From contig JABDJK010000097.1 in assembly GCA_013002535.1 (NCBI GenBank), forward strand, positions 1-44,075: 44,075 nt of DNA, written 5' to 3'. The position numbers and the translations under genes are program-made. How positions within the stretch are numbered: the first letter of the stretch is position 1; the number at the start of each line of letters is the position of its first letter. Below, piece by piece: positions 37,650 through 44,075 of the stretch. The notes under the pieces were generated by a model. The model was not told the DNA's origin and made no database searches. It was given only the letters and a program-made list of their open reading frames with translations. This stretch comes from Hyphococcus sp. (GTDB lineage: Bacteria; Pseudomonadota; Alphaproteobacteria; Caulobacterales; Parvularculaceae).

Positions 37650-38762
37650 TTAGTACACAATTACGCTTCTGATACTCTTCCCTTCATGCATCAAATCGAA
37701 CGCTTTGTTGATGTTTTCCAGCGGCATCGTATGGGTGATGAGCGGATCGATTTGAATCTTATCGTCCATATACCAATCGACGACTTTCGGCGTGTCGGTG
37801 CGCCCGCGGGCGCCGCCAAAGGCGGTGCCTTTCCAGACGCGGCCGGTCACCAGTTGAAACGGCCGGGTTGAAATTTCTTTCCCCGCTTCCGCCACGCCGA
37901 TGATAATCGACTGGCCCCAGCCGCGGTGACAGCATTCCAGCGCCTGGCGCATCACGTCCGTATTGCCGGTGCAATCGAAAGAGTAATCCGCGCCGCCATC
38001 GGTCAGTTCAATGATCCTATCAACGACATTATCAACGCCGACCTCGTTCACATTGACAAAATCCGACATGCCGAATTCCCGCGCCATCTTTTCGCGGCCC
38101 GGATTGATATCGACGCCGATGATCTTGTCGGCGCCGACGAGCTTGGCGCCCTGAATGACATTGAGGCCGATGCCGCCGAGCCCGAACACCGCAACTGTCG
38201 CGCCCGGTTCCACGCCCGCCGTCCACACGACCGCGCCGACGCCTGTCGTCACGCCGCAGCCGACATAACAAGCCTTGTCGAAGGGCGCATCTTTGCGGAT
38301 CTTTGCGACGGAAAATTCCGACACCACCGTGAAATTCGAAAAAGTCGAACACCCCATATAATGGGCGAGTTTTTCGCCCTTCCAGGAAAACCGGCTTGTG
38401 CCGTCGGGCATCACGCCCTGGCCTTGCGTCGCGCGCACCGACGTGCACAGATTGCTTTTCTGTGAAAGACAGGTTTTACACTGGCGGCACTCTGCAGTGT
38501 AAAGCGGGATCACATGATCGCCGGGCTCAACGCTGGTGACGCCGGCTCCAACCTCGCGCACAATCCCGGCGCCCTCGTGACCGAGGATCGATGGAAAAAT
38601 ACCTTCTGAGTCCTTGCCCTCCAGCGTATAGGCGTCGGTGTGGCAGATCCCCGTCGCCATAATCTCTATCAAAACCTCACCAGCCTTCGGTCCCTCAAGG
38701 TCAACCTCTTCGATCACAAGCGGTTTATTCGGCTCAATGGCGATTGCGGCTCTTGTTTTCAT
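37650..38762 (-). CDS. frmA: S-(hydroxymethyl)glutathione dehydrogenase (class III alcohol dehydrogenase)
   Basis: A 370-residue zinc-dependent, NAD-linked enzyme oxidising S-hydroxymethylglutathione, the first enzymatic step in glutathione-dependent formaldehyde detoxification. Seen: catalytic zinc ligands in [18 protein letters not shown] and a later Cys ([14 protein letters not shown]); the structural zinc lobe [15 protein letters not shown]; and the Rossmann motif FGLGGIG. Length is standard. A strong GGGAGG Shine-Dalgarno lies 6 nt upstream. The pathway is completed by fghA downstream. Confidence 0.97.
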
Positions 38763-38768
38763 AAATGA

Positions 38769-38774
38769 CCTCCC
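38769..38774 (-). promoter_or_regulatory. Shine-Dalgarno of frmA
   Basis: GGGAGG on the minus strand, 6 nt before the frmA ATG at 38762. It is among the stronger ribosome-binding sites in the window. Confidence 0.8.
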
Positions 38775-38785
38775 ACGTCATGGTT

Positions 38786-38805
38786 CGTTATTGACGACAT
38801 TAACG
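38786..38805. promoter_or_regulatory. imperfect 20-bp palindrome upstream of frmA
   Basis: CGTTATTGACGACATTAACG matches its own reverse complement at 16 of 20 positions, with perfect 5-bp ends. It lies 24-43 nt upstream of the frmA start, where an operator for a formaldehyde-responsive regulator could sit. The regulator is not identified. Confidence 0.4.
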
Positions 38806-38824
38806 CGCGATGCGGAGGCGCTGT

Positions 38825-38836
38825 CTAGCATGCTAG
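38825..38836. promoter_or_regulatory. perfect 12-bp palindrome in the frmA/GDT1 divergent region
   Basis: CTAGCATGCTAG is fully self-complementary. It lies 63 nt from the frmA start and 43 nt before the GDT1 gene. It is a possible operator shared by the two promoters, unproven. Confidence 0.35.
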
Positions 38837-38878
38837 GTACTTAATTGAAGCATACCCTGAACCCGTTTGGAGAACCCT

Positions 38879-39154
38879 ATGACAGCCTTCCTCACCATTT
38901 TTATTTCCGTATTCCTCGCCGAACTTGGCGATAAAACACAGATAGCAACACTGTTGTTCGCGACGGACGCAGACAAAAACCCTGTGCTGGTTTTTCTCGC
39001 CGCTTCCAGCGCACTGATCGCATCGACCGCGCTCGCTGTATTGTTGGGACGGCTGGCTGAAAGCTGGTTGTCGGCGCTGCCGCTAAACCTGATCGCTGGT
39101 ATCGGTTTCATCGTGATCGGCGTTTGGACGATTTACGATAACGCGGCAGGATAA
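38879..39154 (+). CDS. half-size GDT1/TMEM165 (UPF0016) family transporter
   Basis: A 91-residue integral membrane protein with three hydrophobic segments and the family motif E15-L-G-D-K-T20. Family knowledge: GDT1 proteins move Mn2+ or Ca2+ across membranes. Full-length members have two such halves; this has one, as do some bacterial forms thought to pair as homo- or heterodimers. No second half is adjacent. GGAG lies about 8 nt before the ATG. Probable role: manganese export or homeostasis (inferred). Confidence 0.88.
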   Translation: MTAFLTIFISVFLAELGDKTQIATLLFATDADKNPVLVFLAASSALIASTALAVLLGRLAESWLSALPLNLIAGIGFIVIGVWTIYDNAAG

Positions 39155-39234
39155 GCGCGCAATGATCGCCGCACGCCGCAACGCAGCAAAAAAACCTGCG
39201 GTGTAATGTTAGTCAGTAACGTCAAAAAGTGAGT

Positions 39235-39255
39235 CGAAAATGCTGATGATTTTCG
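39235..39255. promoter_or_regulatory. inverted repeat upstream of the decapeptide-repeat gene
   Basis: CGAAAAT (39235-39241) and ATTTTCG (39249-39255) are perfect 7-bp inverted copies around a 7-nt spacer, followed by a -10-like CATAAT at 39257-39262. It could be an operator or part of the promoter for the gene at 39400. No T tract, so not a terminator. Confidence 0.35.
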
Positions 39256-39399
39256 GCATAATACGCTGAATTTACGACGAAATTTCTGGCGGATAAATTT
39301 CTTTCCTTCAAACGCTGATTCCCCTTACAATCGCGTGTCACCTACCCAAATAGGCTGTGTGCAGCAGGACCTTTAGGGGAGACATGAAAGGAACAGCAC

Positions 39400-40713
39400 A
39401 TGACCAATTCCCTTGCGAATTCAAAAACACTTCTTATCGCCGGCGGCGTCGCTTTGGCGGCCGTCGCAGTCTACTTCGTCACCAAAGACTCTGACATTAA
39501 AAACGGGGACGCAGCAGGCACCATCGCTATCGGCGAACAGCATCGTGATGACCAAATCACGAAAGCTGATATCGTTCAGGGCGATGACAAGATCTCCGAC
39601 TTTATGCAGACGGAGCACTACGACAAGCTCATCAATGATGATGACTTTATCAAACTCGCCAGCGATCCGGGATTTGCCGCCCTGGCGTCAAACGCCGAGG
39701 CGTTCAAAGCCCTTGCGGCTGCGCCGGAAGCGCTTGCCGCGTTGGCATCGCATCCGAAAGCATTTGAAGCCCTCGCCGGGGCGCCGGAAGCCTTTGCCGC
39801 TTTAGCGGGTGATGCGGAAGCATTCAAAGCGCTCGCCGCGAATGCCGAAGCTATGGAAGCGATGGCCGGTTCGCCGGAAGCGCTTGCGTCGCTTGCCGCG
39901 AACGCCAACGCATTTAAGTCGCTAGCCGGAGCGCCAGAAGCGCTAGCCGCTTTGGCCTCACATGCGAACGCATTCAAAGCCCTCGCCGGACATCCCGAAG
40001 CCTTCAAGGCTTTGGCCGCAAACGCTGAAGCGTTGGAAGGCCTGGCCGGCGATGCAGAAGCGTTCAAAGCGCTGGCTGCGGACGCCTCCGCTCTTGAAGG
40101 ACTGGCGGCCGACGCAGAAGCGCTGCAGGCGCTTTCAGCCGATGCGGAAGCCATGAATGCGCTTGCCGCTGACGCCGAAGCGTTGAACGCTCTTTCAAGC
40201 AACGCGGAAGCTTTTAAAGCGCTTGCAGGAAATGCTGAAGCCATGAACGCACTAGCTGGCAATGCAGAGGCGATGAACGCCCTAGCCGCCAATGCCGAGG
40301 CTTTCAAAGCGATGGCCGCTAACCCAGAAGCCTTGGCGTCACTTGCAGCAAATGCTGAGGCGCTGAAAGCTCTTTCAGGAAATGCGGAAGGTTTGGCCGC
40401 GCTCGCCGCCAACGCAGAAGCCTTCAAAGCAGTCGCAGGCAATGCCGAAGCAATGAATGCGCTGGCGTCTAACGCCGAAGCGTTCAAGTCACTTGCCGGA
40501 AATGCTGAAGCCTTGAATGCGCTGGCGTCAAACGCGGAAGCGTTGAATGCCCTCGCGTCAAATGCTGAGGCGCTTGACGCCGTCGCTCGTAACGCGGAAG
40601 CCTTGAATTCGCTTGCCGGTATGGAAGCCTTTGAGGCATTGGCAGGCAACCCGCAGGCGCTTGCCGGTCTCGCAGCCAGCGGTGATTTACGGGCATTGAA
40701 CAGCCAACAGTAG
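39400..40713 (+). CDS. membrane-anchored decapeptide-repeat protein, function unknown
   Basis: A 437-residue protein I do not recognise. Residues 9-28 are a hydrophobic segment without a clear cleavage site, so it is probably an N-terminal membrane anchor with the rest outside the cytoplasm. A charged linker runs to about residue 78, then the protein is almost only repeats of ten residues. There are 31 consecutive exact-length units at 98-407, a nine-residue unit (408-416), one more unit (417-426), and two or three worn units before residue 98. Consensus: N/D - A/P - E - A - F/L/M - x - A - L - A - A/G/S. Proline occurs only at position 2, and polar N/D/H/S mostly at position 1, the pattern of a helix N-cap, so each unit may be a short two-turn helix. 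The domain is rich in Ala and acidic. Its own strong terminator follows at 40748, so it is expressed as a separate unit. Confidence 0.85.
   Translation: MTNSLANSKTLLIAGGVALAAVAVYFVTKDSDIKNGDAAGTIAIGEQHRDDQITKADIVQGDDKISDFMQTEHYDKLINDDDFIKLASDPGFAALASNAEAFKALAAAPEALAALASHPKAFEALAGAPEAFAALAGDAEAFKALAANAEAMEAMAGSPEALASLAANANAFKSLAGAPEALAALASHANAFKALAGHPEAFKALAANAEALEGLAGDAEAFKALAADASALEGLAADAEALQALSADAEAMNALAADAEALNALSSNAEAFKALAGNAEAMNALAGNAEAMNALAANAEAFKAMAANPEALASLAANAEALKALSGNAEGLAALAANAEAFKAVAGNAEAMNALASNAEAFKSLAGNAEALNALASNAEALNALASNAEALDAVARNAEALNSLAGMEAFEALAGNPQALAGLAASGDLRALNSQQ
39691..40677 (+). repeat. about 33 tandem 30-bp coding repeats
   Basis: The 30-bp coding unit is repeated end to end. 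Units differ freely at third codon positions (GCC/GCG/GCT/GCA for Ala, GAA/GAG for Glu) while the protein pattern is kept. This points to an old array held by selection on the protein rather than a fresh slippage product. Near-identical neighbours (units 28-29, NAEALNALAS) show some later duplication. Confidence 0.9.
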
Positions 40714-40747
40714 GCTCACAGCTTAAATGTTGCACACTTGAATATGC

Positions 40748-40779
40748 GGCCGCCCCCTAAACGGGGCGGCCATTTTTTT
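40748..40779 (+). terminator. strong rho-independent terminator
   Basis: A perfect 9-bp all-G/C stem (GGCCGCCCC at 40748-40756 with GGGGCGGCC at 40763-40771), a 6-nt loop, then seven T at 40773-40779. It closes the decapeptide-repeat transcript and separates it from the protease-barrel gene 31 nt further on. Confidence 0.95.
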
Positions 40780-40809
40780 ATCTGGGGACTAACACCGTCG
40801 GGGGGCGAA

Positions 40810-43758
40810 ATGAGAGAGACGTTTCTAGGGCTAGCCGCGCTCTGCGCCTTCGCGTTTTCGTCGAGTGCAACGGCGGAAGAATTCAAATTATCGGTACAGG
40901 AGACTGACGAAGTCCGCGTCCTTTATTCCGGCATCGCGCAGGAAAACCGCATCCCCCACATCAACGGCACGCTGATTAACGCCATGCGTTTCCAGAAAGA
41001 ACTTTTCAACTGGGAGCCATGGGAGAAACCGACCGTTTTATTGATGGATTTATCCGACTACGGAAATGGCGCTGCATTCTCATCGCCAATCAATGGCATT
41101 CATCTGGAAATGGCGCCGGTCAGCCGAACGTTTGAGTCCTTCGTTGCGGCTGAACGCATGTATTCGCTGATCAACCATGAAACGGTGCATGTCGCGGCGC
41201 TTGATGTATGGAATGAACGCGACGCATTCTGGCGCAAGGTGTTCTTTGGCAAACCTATGCCCGACCGCGCCCACCCCATCACAATTTTATATAATTTCCT
41301 CGCAACCCCGCGCGTCAACGCCCCGCGCTGGTATCATGAAGGCAGCGCGGTTTTCCTAGAGACCTGGATGGCCGGCGGCGTCGGCCGCGCACAAGGCGCC
41401 TATGACGAAATGGTGTTCCGCGCCATGGTGCGAGACGACGCGCATTTTTACGGACCACTTGGTCTCGTTTCCAAAGGGACCGCCGTCGACTTCCGCGGCA
41501 TGGCGAACGCCTATCTCTATGGCACGCGGTTCTTTAGCTACCTCTCAATCGCCTACGGTCCGGACAAGGTTGTTGAATGGCTCGGCCGCGGGCCGGACAG
41601 CAAGGCGTATTACTCAAGTCAGTTCAAACATGTCTTCGGCAAAAGCCTGAACGAAGCCTGGGCCGACTGGATTGCTTTTGAACATGATTTTCAGGCAAAA
41701 AATCTCGAGCGCATTCGAATCCATCCGATTACGGAGCGTGAGACGCTATCAAACGAAGCGCTCGGCTCAATCTCGCGCGCCTTCTTTAACGCCGAGCGCG
41801 GCACATTGCTCGCCGCATATCGCTTCCCCGGCGTTGTCGAAATGGTCGGCGAGCTCGACATCAACGATGGCGGCATTCGCCGACTGACCGACGTCAAAGG
41901 ATCGATGCCGCACCGCGTATCGTCCGTCGCCTACGACCCGGAAAGTAAAACTGCGTGGTACACAACCGACAACCTCGCCCACCGCGATATTGTTCAACTT
42001 GATGTTGAGACCGGCAAAAAAAATGTTTTGCTGCGCGACATCCGGATAGGCGATCTTGTTTTCAATCGGGCGGATCGATCGCTCTGGGGCGTGCGCCATT
42101 TAAATACGGTCTCGTCGCTCGTTCGCATTGAGCCGCCCTATGGAAAAGAGAACTGGAAACTCATCCATCAAGCCGATTTCGGCGAGGATATGTTCGACCT
42201 TGATATCTCGCCGGATGGTACATTGATGGCGATGACGCAGGGGACTGTGTCAGGCCAACAGACGCTGAAAGTTTTGCGCATCGATGATTTGCTCGAAAAC
42301 AAATTCGATCCGATCGCGACATTTCACATTCCGAACAAACAGCCTGAAGGCGCTGCGTTTTCGCCCGACGGAAAACACGTATATTTTAGCTCCTACATCA
42401 CGAACGTCTCAAATATTTTTCGGTTGAACATTGAAACCGAAGAATGGCAGGCGCTGTCCAACACCGAAACAGGGCTCGTTCGACCGATCCCGCAAGCGGA
42501 CGGGTCAGTGATTGCGTTCGAATTCACCGGCGAAGGTTTCACGCCTGTTCGCCTTGAGGGCGAGCCGATTACCAGCATCGAAGCCATTCAATATCTCGGT
42601 TACGAACTAAAACAGAAACGTCCGGAAATGGCGCAATTCGCTGCCGGCAACGCCAAAGACAATGTCGACTTGGCAAAGGAAGCACCGGTTAATTCCGTAT
42701 ACAAGCCGAGCCGGCGCCTGCGTCTTGGGTCTATTTATCCGATCATCGAAGGCTACAAAGGCGAGGTCGGGTTTGGCATCCATGTCAATTTCGAAGACCC
42801 CGCCTATTTCAACCAAGTCGATGTGACGCTTTCCTGGTCGCCCAGCGATACGCTAATGGGCGACGAAAAATTTCATGCAGACCTATCCTATAAGGGCCTC
42901 AACTGGCGCGCGCGCTACTGGCACAACGATGCAGATTTCTACGACCTATTCGGCCCGACCAAACGCGCCCGCAAAGGCGACGCCTTTATTCTCGGTTACG
43001 AAAAAGCGTTGATCTATGACGATCCGCGCGTACTGCGCATTGGCGGCGAGGTCGGTTATTACTCCGGGCTCGATACATTGCCGCAAAACCAGAATGTCGG
43101 GACGACGTTTACCGAACTCCTAGCGACCGAGTTCATGTTGTCCTATACCAACACGCAAGACAGCCTCGGCAGCGTGGATCATGAAAAGGGATGGCGCTGG
43201 GACCTTCACGCCAATGTTGATCGCGCCGGCGGCGACACCATCGGCCGCGTTCATGGCGGCATTGATTTCGGGTTCGCCCTGCCGATCAAAAACTCATCGG
43301 TTTGGTTTTACAATTCCGGCGGCTTCGCCGAAGGAAACGACCTCAATCCGTTATCGAGTTTCTATTTCGGCGGATTCAAAAATAACTATGTGGATGATCG
43401 TGAGGTCAAACGCTACCGCGAGTATCACACGCTCCCCGGCTTTGAGATCGACGAGATTGCCGGACGTGAATTTGCGAAGTCCATCGCCGAATGGAACTTG
43501 CCGCCTTACCGGTTTGAGAGTATCGGCACGCCCAGCCTTTTCCTCGCCAATGCGCGCACGGCTATCTTTGGCGGCGCCTTGTGGGCGAATCCAGCATTCG
43601 CGCCCGACCGCGTGCTTTACACGCTCGGCGGACAAGTCGATTTCAACTTCACCCTCGCCCATCGCCTGCCTATGACATTGTCCATCGGCTACGCTTCCGG
43701 ATTTGAGAGTGGCGAGGCCCGCAATGATGAATTTCTGATTTCCCTTAAAATCATGTAA
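40810..43758 (+). CDS. exported zinc-peptidase / beta-propeller / outer-membrane barrel fusion protein
   Basis: A 982-residue protein. Residues 1-22 form a signal peptide (cleavage near SATA-EE). Residues about 25-310 look like a peptidase MA-type gluzincin domain: H123-E-T-V-H127, then W-Y-H-E177-G-S-A, the usual third ligand. Residues about 330-620 look like a TolB/WD40-like beta-propeller (DVKGSMPHRVSSVAYDPESK, DLDISPDGTLMAMTQG, AAFSPDGKHVYFSSY). Residues about 635-982 show alternating, aromatic-rich amphipathic strands (VDVTLSWSPSD, ADLSYKGLNWRARYWHND, LRIGGEVGYYSG) like an outer-membrane beta-barrel, ending ISLKIM rather than the usual aromatic residue. ATG 40810 starts the signal peptide; the frame opens 24 codons earlier across the terminator. 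It may be a surface-exposed or barrel-anchored protease (inferred). It probably shares a transcript with the PrsW-like gene 27 nt downstream. Confidence 0.8.
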   Translation: MRETFLGLAALCAFAFSSSATAEEFKLSVQETDEVRVLYSGIAQENRIPHINGTLINAMRFQKELFNWEPWEKPTVLLMDLSDYGNGAAFSSPINGIHLEMAPVSRTFESFVAAERMYSLINHETVHVAALDVWNERDAFWRKVFFGKPMPDRAHPITILYNFLATPRVNAPRWYHEGSAVFLETWMAGGVGRAQGAYDEMVFRAMVRDDAHFYGPLGLVSKGTAVDFRGMANAYLYGTRFFSYLSIAYGPDKVVEWLGRGPDSKAYYSSQFKHVFGKSLNEAWADWIAFEHDFQAKNLERIRIHPITERETLSNEALGSISRAFFNAERGTLLAAYRFPGVVEMVGELDINDGGIRRLTDVKGSMPHRVSSVAYDPESKTAWYTTDNLAHRDIVQLDVETGKKNVLLRDIRIGDLVFNRADRSLWGVRHLNTVSSLVRIEPPYGKENWKLIHQADFGEDMFDLDISPDGTLMAMTQGTVSGQQTLKVLRIDDLLENKFDPIATFHIPNKQPEGAAFSPDGKHVYFSSYITNVSNIFRLNIETEEWQALSNTETGLVRPIPQADGSVIAFEFTGEGFTPVRLEGEPITSIEAIQYLGYELKQKRPEMAQFAAGNAKDNVDLAKEAPVNSVYKPSRRLRLGSIYPIIEGYKGEVGFGIHVNFEDPAYFNQVDVTLSWSPSDTLMGDEKFHADLSYKGLNWRARYWHNDADFYDLFGPTKRARKGDAFILGYEKALIYDDPRVLRIGGEVGYYSGLDTLPQNQNVGTTFTELLATEFMLSYTNTQDSLGSVDHEKGWRWDLHANVDRAGGDTIGRVHGGIDFGFALPIKNSSVWFYNSGGFAEGNDLNPLSSFYFGGFKNNYVDDREVKRYREYHTLPGFEIDEIAGREFAKSIAEWNLPPYRFESIGTPSLFLANARTAIFGGALWANPAFAPDRVLYTLGGQVDFNFTLAHRLPMTLSIGYASGFESGEARNDEFLISLKIM

Positions 43759-43785
43759 GCGAGAAGCGGACAAACAAAGATTACA

Positions 43786-44075
43786 ATGCCGCTGGAATTC
43801 ATTTTCAAAAAAATGCTTGGCGCGCTGCCAGTCCTGATGTTTCTGACCGCGCTCGTGCAATTCGATTCATTCAAACTCGTGCGCTTGCGCCTGGTTCTGA
43901 TGACCATCACCGCCGGCGCCTTCGCCGCTGTCGTTGGCGCCTTTGCCAATACCGAACTCATCGCGGCGCTCAACATGAGCTATCTTGACTATTCACACAC
44001 CATCGCGCCTTGGTTTGAAGAAATCCTGAAAGCGCTGGTCATTATTTTTCTAATACAGACCAGTAGAATTGGGTT
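43786..44075 (+). CDS. PrsW-like intramembrane metalloprotease, 3' end outside the window
   Basis: The first 96 codons of a membrane protein (no stop before the right edge). Seen: two hydrophobic segments (about residues 11-25 and 33-55) and then PWFEEILKALVIIFL, carrying the EExxK motif (E-E-I-L-K) of the PrsW family, whose known member in Bacillus cleaves an anti-sigma factor. With only the first motif in view the assignment is tentative; later His-containing motifs should follow. It starts 27 nt after the protease-barrel gene, suggesting joint transcription. No strong Shine-Dalgarno. Confidence 0.65.
   Translation, partial: MPLEFIFKKMLGALPVLMFLTALVQFDSFKLVRLRLVLMTITAGAFAAVVGAFANTELIAALNMSYLDYSHTIAPWFEEILKALVIIFLIQTSRIG

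What the first reader, a model, noticed from the sequence alone, without database searches (positions are those of the whole stretch)
39400..40713. Membrane-anchored protein built from about 33 decapeptide repeats
Seen: 31 back-to-back units of exactly ten residues (98-407) plus two more, with consensus N/D-A/P-E-A-F/L/M-x-A-L-A-A/G/S. Proline is confined to position 2, and Asn/Asp/His/Ser mostly occupy position 1, a helix N-cap signature. A ten-residue period fits neither the heptad nor the 11-residue helix repeat, nor the pentapeptide repeat. Inference: a chain of short capped helices forming a rod, solenoid or spacer across the periplasm. I know no described family with this pattern.
Basis: partly seen in the sequence, partly recalled or inferred. 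Interest (0 to 1): 0.75.

Follow-up and report, generated by a model that had tools for sequence, protein, structure and literature searches.

The report
Swappable repeat rod beside two proteases
A marine bacterium carries a protein made almost entirely of ten-residue repeats, predicted to form short helices and found in its relatives next to the same two protease-like genes; a few relatives keep the protein's front end but build the rest from quite different repeats, which suggests that the repeats act as a mechanical rod.

Summary
In detail: 31 exact in-register decads (residues 98-407), flanked by 9- and 10-residue variants. Third codon positions of the units differ at 69%, second at 13%: the repeats are old and kept at protein level. 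AlphaFold2 predicts one 8-residue helix plus a 2-residue turn per decad, with moderate confidence. The pattern has precedent: phage tail-fibre families and the phage CDHS-1 receptor-binding protein 7qlr are the nearest matches. No Pfam or NCBIfam family covers it.

The larger finding is the context. The gene (A) precedes B (HExxH metallopeptidase, propeller, putative outer-membrane barrel) and C (PrsW-type protease). Among 32 genomes with B, A lies directly upstream in 31 of 31 testable; C follows B in 31 of 32. A terminator-like hairpin separates A from B in 13 of 22 loci tested. Three relatives keep A's anchor and head but have tetrads or 8-mers instead of decads; three more mix decads with other repeats. 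I read A as an abundant, sequence-tolerant helical rod handled by B and C; location, contacts and processing are inferred.

The parts
39400..40713 (+). Gene A: 437-aa decad-repeat rod protein
   Evidence: ORF; homologues in 21 of 299 genomes of the order and next to B in three further families of the class
39430..39483 (+). N-terminal hydrophobic segment (residues 11-28), putative signal anchor
   Evidence: sequence; mostly helical in the models (residues 8-28, 16-29); hydrophobic stretch in all 13 sequences aligned (by eye). Anchor rather than cleaved signal is inferred
39484..39690 (+). Head (residues 29-97) with AGTIA, GDD and MQT motifs and three 9-residue units (71-97)
   Evidence: G40 T41 D57 G61 Q70 T71 invariant in 13 of 13 sequences aligned (the window and 12 relatives, three of them without decads)
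39691..40620 (+). 31 exact decapeptide repeats (residues 98-407)
   Evidence: predicted one short helix per decad
40621..40713 (+). C-terminal units (9-mer 408-416, 10-mer 417-426) and tail
   Evidence: the tail differs from that of most relatives
40748..40781 (+). Terminator-like hairpin between A and B (9 G-C pairs, then ATTTTTTTAT)
   Evidence: comparable hairpin + T run (score >=14) in 13 of 22 A-B gaps against 2 of 880 random windows
40810..43758 (+). Gene B, likely start ATG 40810 (982 aa): signal-peptide-like start, HExxH metallopeptidase domain, TolB-like propeller, putative outer-membrane beta-barrel. The ORF list starts it at TTG 40738, upstream of the hairpin
   Evidence: HExxH...EGS in 23 of 23 B proteins checked
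43786..44075 (+). Gene C, first 96 codons (cut by the contig end): PrsW-type intramembrane protease
   Evidence: 56% identity to C of L020; PF13367 in the 3 full-length relatives scanned, E 1.5e-15 to 3.2e-18

Best explanation
Gene A encodes a rod: an N-terminal hydrophobic anchor, a conserved head of about 60 residues, and a long chain of short alpha-helices, one per decapeptide, stacked as a superhelix. It is the first and probably most abundant product of a three-gene envelope cassette. B is probably an outer-membrane barrel carrying a periplasmic zinc metallopeptidase and a propeller. C is a PrsW-type intramembrane protease. I propose that A is inserted in the inner membrane by its anchor, that its head is what B and C recognise, and that the two proteases process or turn over A (C in the membrane, B at the periplasmic or outer-membrane side), releasing or repositioning the rod in the envelope. 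What is kept across families is the head and a total length of roughly 380-600 residues; the repeat type can be exchanged, so the rod works mechanically (spacer, filler or fibre shaft), not by a sequence-specific surface. Shown: repeats, cassette, co-occurrence, exchange of repeats, conserved protease motifs, hairpin in many loci. Predicted: helix-per-decad fold. Inferred: membrane topology, barrel, excess of A, contact with B and C, proteolytic processing.
For: A and B occur in the same 21 of 299 order genomes. A lies directly upstream of B, same strand, in 31 of 31 genomes with upstream sequence (in five of these only the C-terminal part of A is seen, the contig ending within it), C after B in 31 of 32. 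The head is conserved in three relatives whose repeats are AASQ-type tetrads (G683, G984) or 8-mers (G990); 14-mers mixed with decads occur in G952, EALGH pentads plus decads in G948, EGLAAQGRAA units plus decads in G956. Decads of the window are under protein-level selection. Fold. HExxH...EGS in 23 of 23 B; PrsW domain and invariant EE, EN, H and H..FN positions in C. Terminator-like hairpin between A and B.
Against: No experiment. AlphaFold2 models are of moderate confidence (mean pLDDT 50 and 65.6; pTM 0.37 and 0.50). B's C-terminal part has no Pfam match at cut-off. Nine of 22 A-B gaps score below 14 in the hairpin test, six below 11, and a looser terminator scan of 38700-44075 finds fewer sites (4) than shuffles (mean 8.0), so excess of A is a guess. 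The segment before the hydrophobic stretch is only about 10 residues and no cleavage site is known. G014 has A and B without C next to B.
Confidence: 0.4

Rival explanations
1. Envelope tether or ruler: the rod is anchored in the inner membrane and its far end docks on the periplasmic part of B at the outer membrane, so that repeat number sets the distance between the membranes.
For: Pairing with B; putative membrane anchor at one end; variable repeat number and exchange of repeat type within a limited range of total length. The tip is alike in many decad forms: of the 20 C-terminal ends, 15 end in F..A...N and one more is close (counted by eye).
Against: The tip differs in the window protein and three same-genus proteins and is lost in the three forms without decads. 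The hairpin after A suggests excess over B rather than 1:1. Rods of different repeat type and like residue number need not have like length.
Confidence: 0.28
2. Regulated intramembrane proteolysis: A is a sensor in the periplasm; B makes a first cut, C a second within the membrane (or the reverse), and the cut product signals.
For: Two proteases beside a single-pass protein, one of them PrsW-like; PrsW in B. subtilis cleaves the anti-sigma factor RsiW (PMC10202637, passages seen). In one locus an ECF-type sigma factor (PF08281, 2.9e-16) with a weakly anti-sigma-like neighbour lies about 6 kb upstream of A (L064:9205-10496).
Against: The segment before the hydrophobic stretch is only about 10 residues, no cytoplasmic domain to release. 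The genes outside A-B-C mostly differ between the loci compared, so no regulator is seen linked to the cassette in general. PrsW acts as the first, not the second, protease in B. subtilis.
Confidence: 0.15
3. A domesticated or remnant phage tail-fibre shaft.
For: Nearest sequence and fold matches are phage proteins.
Against: A sits next to B in every testable locus; tblastn finds no match in 50,697 phage records (low-complexity filter on, so weak); the reversed repeat still matches phrog_7809 at 2.5e-12, so much of the match is pattern rather than descent.
Confidence: 0.04
4. Low-complexity by-product: an Ala-rich disordered or slippage-generated chain without a rod structure.
For: Strong Ala bias; repeat arrays in two relatives are near-identical recent expansions (EALGH nt divergence 10%, EGLAAQGRAA 22%); moderate model confidence.
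Against: Third against second codon position divergence 0.69 against 0.13 in the window gene; strict positional pattern with Pro only at position 2; consistent helix-turn prediction; linkage to B.
Confidence: 0.07

Closest known systems
Receptor-binding protein of Clostridioides difficile phage CDHS-1 (PDB 7qlr)
   Same: Best PDB match by sequence (phmmer 1.3e-8; profile 9.6e-12) and first in Foldseek for both models; with the better model TM 0.57 by query length, against at most 0.31 for any other protein in the 50 rows shown.
   Different: Phage protein; no anchor, head motif or B/C partners known to me; 12-17% identity in the fold alignments. Much of the sequence match is pattern or composition: the reversed sequence matches 7qlr at 0.0026 and other proteins down to 5.5e-6, and the profile also matches a TAL effector structure at 2.2e-7.
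PHROG families phrog_7809 (tail fibre) and phrog_22415 (unknown function)
   Same: Matches over several stretches of the decads: 5.9e-21 and 4.8e-15; neither family is hit when positions within decads are permuted or shuffled.
   Different: The reversed sequence still matches phrog_7809 at 2.5e-12 and another tail-fibre family at 1.5e-10, so homology is not separable from convergence. Of 200 phylum genomes only the window's own passes 1e-6 (at 2.4e-7), and none of 14 control genomes.
PrsW intramembrane proteases (PF13367, NF033739) - gene C
   Same: PF13367 above its cut-off in 3 of 3 relatives scanned; invariant EE, EN, H, H..FN positions (catalytic role recalled).
   Different: Far below the NF033739 equivalog cut-off (at best 24.5 against 225 bits); about 140 further residues after the PrsW domain.
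TolB-like propeller / HExxH gluzincin peptidases - gene B
   Same: PD40 repeat above the Pfam cut-off in the window protein; TolB profile at 1.6e-4, 1.3e-5 and 0.0018 in three B proteins, all far below its cut-off; HExxH...EGS.
   Different: No Pfam family at cut-off for peptidase or C-terminal part; fusion of three domains. Distant relatives in another family of the phylum match mainly over the peptidase region and showed no A or C among neighbouring ORFs in 5 loci inspected by eye.
p180/RRBP1 decapeptide repeats
   Same: Tandem ten-residue repeats in a membrane-anchored protein (recalled; one search shows only a listing with p180 papers).
   Different: Eukaryotic, basic unit (recalled); no sequence relation seen or tested.

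Membership tests
Phage decad-repeat proteins (7qlr, phrog_7809) | Ten-residue unit pattern matched by the family profile | tested here: met
   (decads alone 1.2e-19; permuted and per-unit shuffled: phrog_7809 not hit)
Phage decad-repeat proteins (7qlr, phrog_7809) | Common descent rather than similar pattern | tested here: inconclusive
   reversed sequence 2.5e-12 and 0.0026 for 7qlr; tblastn of phage records no match
Phage decad-repeat proteins (7qlr, phrog_7809) | One short helix per decad, stacked as in 7qlr | tested here: inconclusive
Pentapeptide repeat proteins | Pfam pentapeptide profile / five-residue period | tested here: not met
   no such Pfam hit at E <= 5; lag 10 identity 0.54 against lag 5 0.32
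Armadillo/HEAT/TPR solenoids | Pfam repeat profile; units of about 34-42 residues (recalled) | tested here: not met
   no hit at E <= 5; unit is 10; beta-catenin matches at TM <= 0.32 in the rows shown
PrsW family (gene C) | PF13367 domain above gathering score | tested here: met
   57.7, 66.4 and 58.9 bits against 23.5 in 3 full-length relatives; the window's C is cut by the contig end
PrsW family (gene C) | Proteolytic activity on a membrane substrate | not testable with these tools
   none
HExxH gluzincin metallopeptidase (gene B) | HExxH plus a downstream Glu in an EG motif (motif recalled) | tested here: met
   23 of 23 B proteins checked; no Pfam peptidase family at cut-off
Outer-membrane beta-barrel (gene B C-terminus) | Match to a known barrel family or predicted barrel fold | tested here: inconclusive
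   no Pfam barrel hit in 4 C-terminal parts scanned; not modelled; reading rests on sequence appearance only

The most novel reading that the evidence does not exclude
A previously undescribed envelope system of Alphaproteobacteria: a dedicated outer-membrane metallopeptidase-propeller-barrel and an intramembrane PrsW protease that process an over-produced, membrane-launched rod whose shaft can be rebuilt from quite different short repeats (decads, tetrads, 8-mers, or decads mixed with 14-mers or pentads) without losing its partners, so that selection acts on mechanics rather than on sequence.
Probability: 0.45. Interest if true: 0.78.

Novelty: new variant of a known kind. Interest (0 to 1): 0.6.

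Why it matters
A repeat pattern whose nearest matches here are phage fibre proteins also occurs in a bacterium's own envelope-type protein, tied to two protease-like genes. The natural exchange of one repeat for another behind a constant head is a ready-made experiment on what a rod needs: it makes the idea that only length and stiffness count directly testable. The cassette also offers a candidate substrate for a PrsW-type protease that is not an anti-sigma factor, and an uncharacterised peptidase-propeller fusion.

Tried and rejected
Pfam and NCBIfam for A: only sub-threshold matches (Lambda_tail_I 0.0012, PVV_CTERM 0.018 and weaker); rejected. Leucine-rich (YopM, IpaH), TAL effector and armadillo matches: low TM or pattern only; rejected. 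The antisense ORF 39618-40649 (343 aa) is taken as a shadow of the codon pattern (judgement, not tested). The G058 hit (25%) is the antisense of a DRPxG-repeat gene and the G383 hit (E 0.0056) shows no 10-residue period; both dropped as chance. Period of 30 or 60 at DNA level as a sign of three helices per turn: pooled unit identity is 0.597, 0.597, 0.578 at lags 1-3 and 0.52-0.54 beyond, no period of three (in the window alone lag 2 is highest, 0.65). Pseudo-deep alignment of overlapping repeat windows (A5) collapsed onto identities and was not used. Rfam: 0 matches in the window at gathering scores. Phage and plasmid tblastn with A: no match (low complexity is masked, so weak). Literature searches (open-licence papers only) gave no description of this cassette in their listings; passages alone were read of PMC13324602, PMC10100898, PMC10202637, PMC10792529 and PMC11870540. 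PMC13324602 mentions one published siphophage RBP crystal structure (Dowah et al. 2021), probably 7qlr; that paper was not seen.

Rows dropped before counts: G960 (contig starts 211 bp before the matched part of B, so A is untestable). G241's B is split over two contigs and was counted once. The A-B gap test used 22 of the 32 loci; B motifs were checked in 23 of 32; the head alignment used 13 sequences; the C alignment 10.

Full report
OBSERVATION. The ORF 39400-40713 (+) encodes 437 residues. Residues 98-407 are 31 exact decads; lag-10 identity is 54% against 20% in 1000 shuffles. Position 1 is N/D/H/S in 28 of 31 units, position 2 is A or P in 31 of 31, position 8 is L in 27 of 31; the prolines are second in their unit. 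By eye the array is preceded by three 9-residue units (71-97) and followed by one 9-mer and one 10-mer. Between units the DNA differs at 36%, 13% and 69% of first, second and third codon positions, and 64% of identical residues use different codons (465 pairs of units): an old array held by selection on the protein.

FOLD. With 6 sequences AlphaFold2 gave mean pLDDT 50, pTM 0.37; with 28 sequences and residues 1-257 mean 65.6, pTM 0.50, ten-residue blocks from residue 101 on at 68-78. Both give a helix of about 8 residues and a 2-residue turn for each decad. Foldseek ranks the CDHS-1 phage receptor-binding protein 7qlr first for both. Sequence: 7qlr 1.3e-8 and 9.6e-12 with the profile, which also meets a TAL effector structure at 2.2e-7; phrog_7809 5.9e-21. 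Controls for phrog_7809: decads alone 1.2e-19, reversed 2.5e-12, one fixed permutation within each decad no hit, shuffling within each decad no hit. The reversed protein matches 7qlr at 0.0026 and other PDB proteins down to 5.5e-6, so PDB E-values of that order mean little here. The similarity lies in the spacing of the decad, which reads almost alike backwards; shared descent is not shown.

The N-terminal profile finds A in 21 of 299 genomes of the order, in two genera of different families, and in 15 of 30 genomes of the second genus. The five complete same-genus proteins have 428-602 residues.

CASSETTE. B and C follow A. A B profile hits the same 21 of 299 genomes, handle by handle. In 289 genomes of the class it finds carriers in three further families; 8 of 60 genomes of one of these families carry B, and 1 of 3 and 2 of 4 of the others. 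In all, 32 genomes with B were examined (B in one piece in 31, split over two contigs in G241). A lies directly upstream on the same strand in 31 of 31 where upstream sequence exists; in five (G006, G272, G254, G948, G956) only its C-terminal part is on the contig. C follows in 31 of 32, partly cut by contig ends in three; G014 lacks it in the 1,567 bases available. In g22 loci B and C overlap at stop and start (coordinates). B has HExxH with a downstream EGS in 23 of 23 proteins checked, a PD40/TolB-like propeller part and a C-terminal part that I read as a barrel without a Pfam match. C has a PrsW domain in 3 of 3 scanned with invariant EE, EN, H and H..FN positions in 10 sequences. In another family of the phylum 13 of 299 sampled genomes have B-like proteins matching mainly over the peptidase region; the ORFs around 5 of them, looked at by eye, include neither A nor C.

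EXCHANGED REPEATS. A is made of decads in 25 of the 31 genomes (24 seen in sequence at least in part, G995 by tblastn only). In three (G952, G948, G956) decads are mixed with 14-mers, 18 identical EALGH pentads in a row, or 9 identical EGLAAQGRAA units; in three (G683, G984, G990) there are no decads but tetrads AASQ/AASN or 8-mers such as KAAADSAA. G948 and G956 are cut by contig ends, so their heads are unseen. In the 13 sequences aligned, including those three without decads, G40 T41 D57 G61 Q70 T71 are invariant and R47, D62, M69, D72, F74 nearly so. The C-terminal tip is alike in many decad forms but different in the window and three same-genus proteins and in the forms without decads.

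EXPRESSION. Between A and B of the window lies a hairpin of nine G-C pairs followed by ATTTTTTTAT. With one score for all, 13 of 22 A-B gaps reach 14, against 2 of 880 random windows of equal length from the same loci; nine do not. The random windows are mostly coding, so this shows terminator-like sites, not that they are unusual for a gene end; a looser scan found fewer such sites in the region than in shuffles. Its place inside the cassette is what suggests that A is made in excess.

MECHANISM. Established: A, B and C travel together; the head and the protease motifs are conserved, the shaft is exchanged. Hence the shaft is likely mechanical. I favour a membrane-launched rod processed by B and C (0.4). 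A tether between the membranes (0.28) is weakened, not excluded, by the variable tip; signalling by intramembrane proteolysis (0.15) by the short N-terminal end, although one locus has an ECF-type sigma gene about 6 kb away.

NOVELTY. The decad repeat is a new occurrence of a pattern met in phage proteins; the cassette and the exchange of shafts were not found in the searches made, which cover open-licence papers only.

Noticed in passing
L064:379-3603 (-): A 1075-aa Cas9-type protein (RuvC_III 2.8e-26, HNH_4 3.5e-22, Cas9_a 8.2e-13) lies on the same contig as A in genome G006.
   Followed up: partly
L064:9205-10496 (-): An ECF-type sigma factor gene (PF08281 2.9e-16) with a neighbour weakly like anti-sigma factors (zf-HC2 0.0036, RseA_N 0.0057, both below cut-off), about 6 kb upstream of A in G006.
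   Followed up: partly
window:39340-39402 and the same place in L003, L004, L007, L020: The leader just before A shares a stretch like GAGTACCTTTTCGGGGAGA..ATGAAAGGACA in 5 of 6 same-genus loci aligned, longer than a ribosome-binding site needs.
   Followed up: partly
L138:3620-4276 (+): A small ORF of 219 aa whose start holds NPCSMKKH-type cysteine repeats, beside a B-like peptidase gene.
   Followed up: no
L008 (+ strand frame 0): A protein with long DRPYGDRPRG repeats; its antisense frame produced the spurious G058 match.
   Followed up: partly
L020:10671-11711, C-terminal part: The part of C after the PrsW domain (243-281) has a weak match to MafI family immunity proteins (3.6e-4, below cut-off).
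   Followed up: no
window:40738-40810: Mechanical ORF calling starts B at a TTG upstream of the hairpin; the likely start is ATG 40810, matching relatives that begin MRA or MRD.
   Followed up: yes
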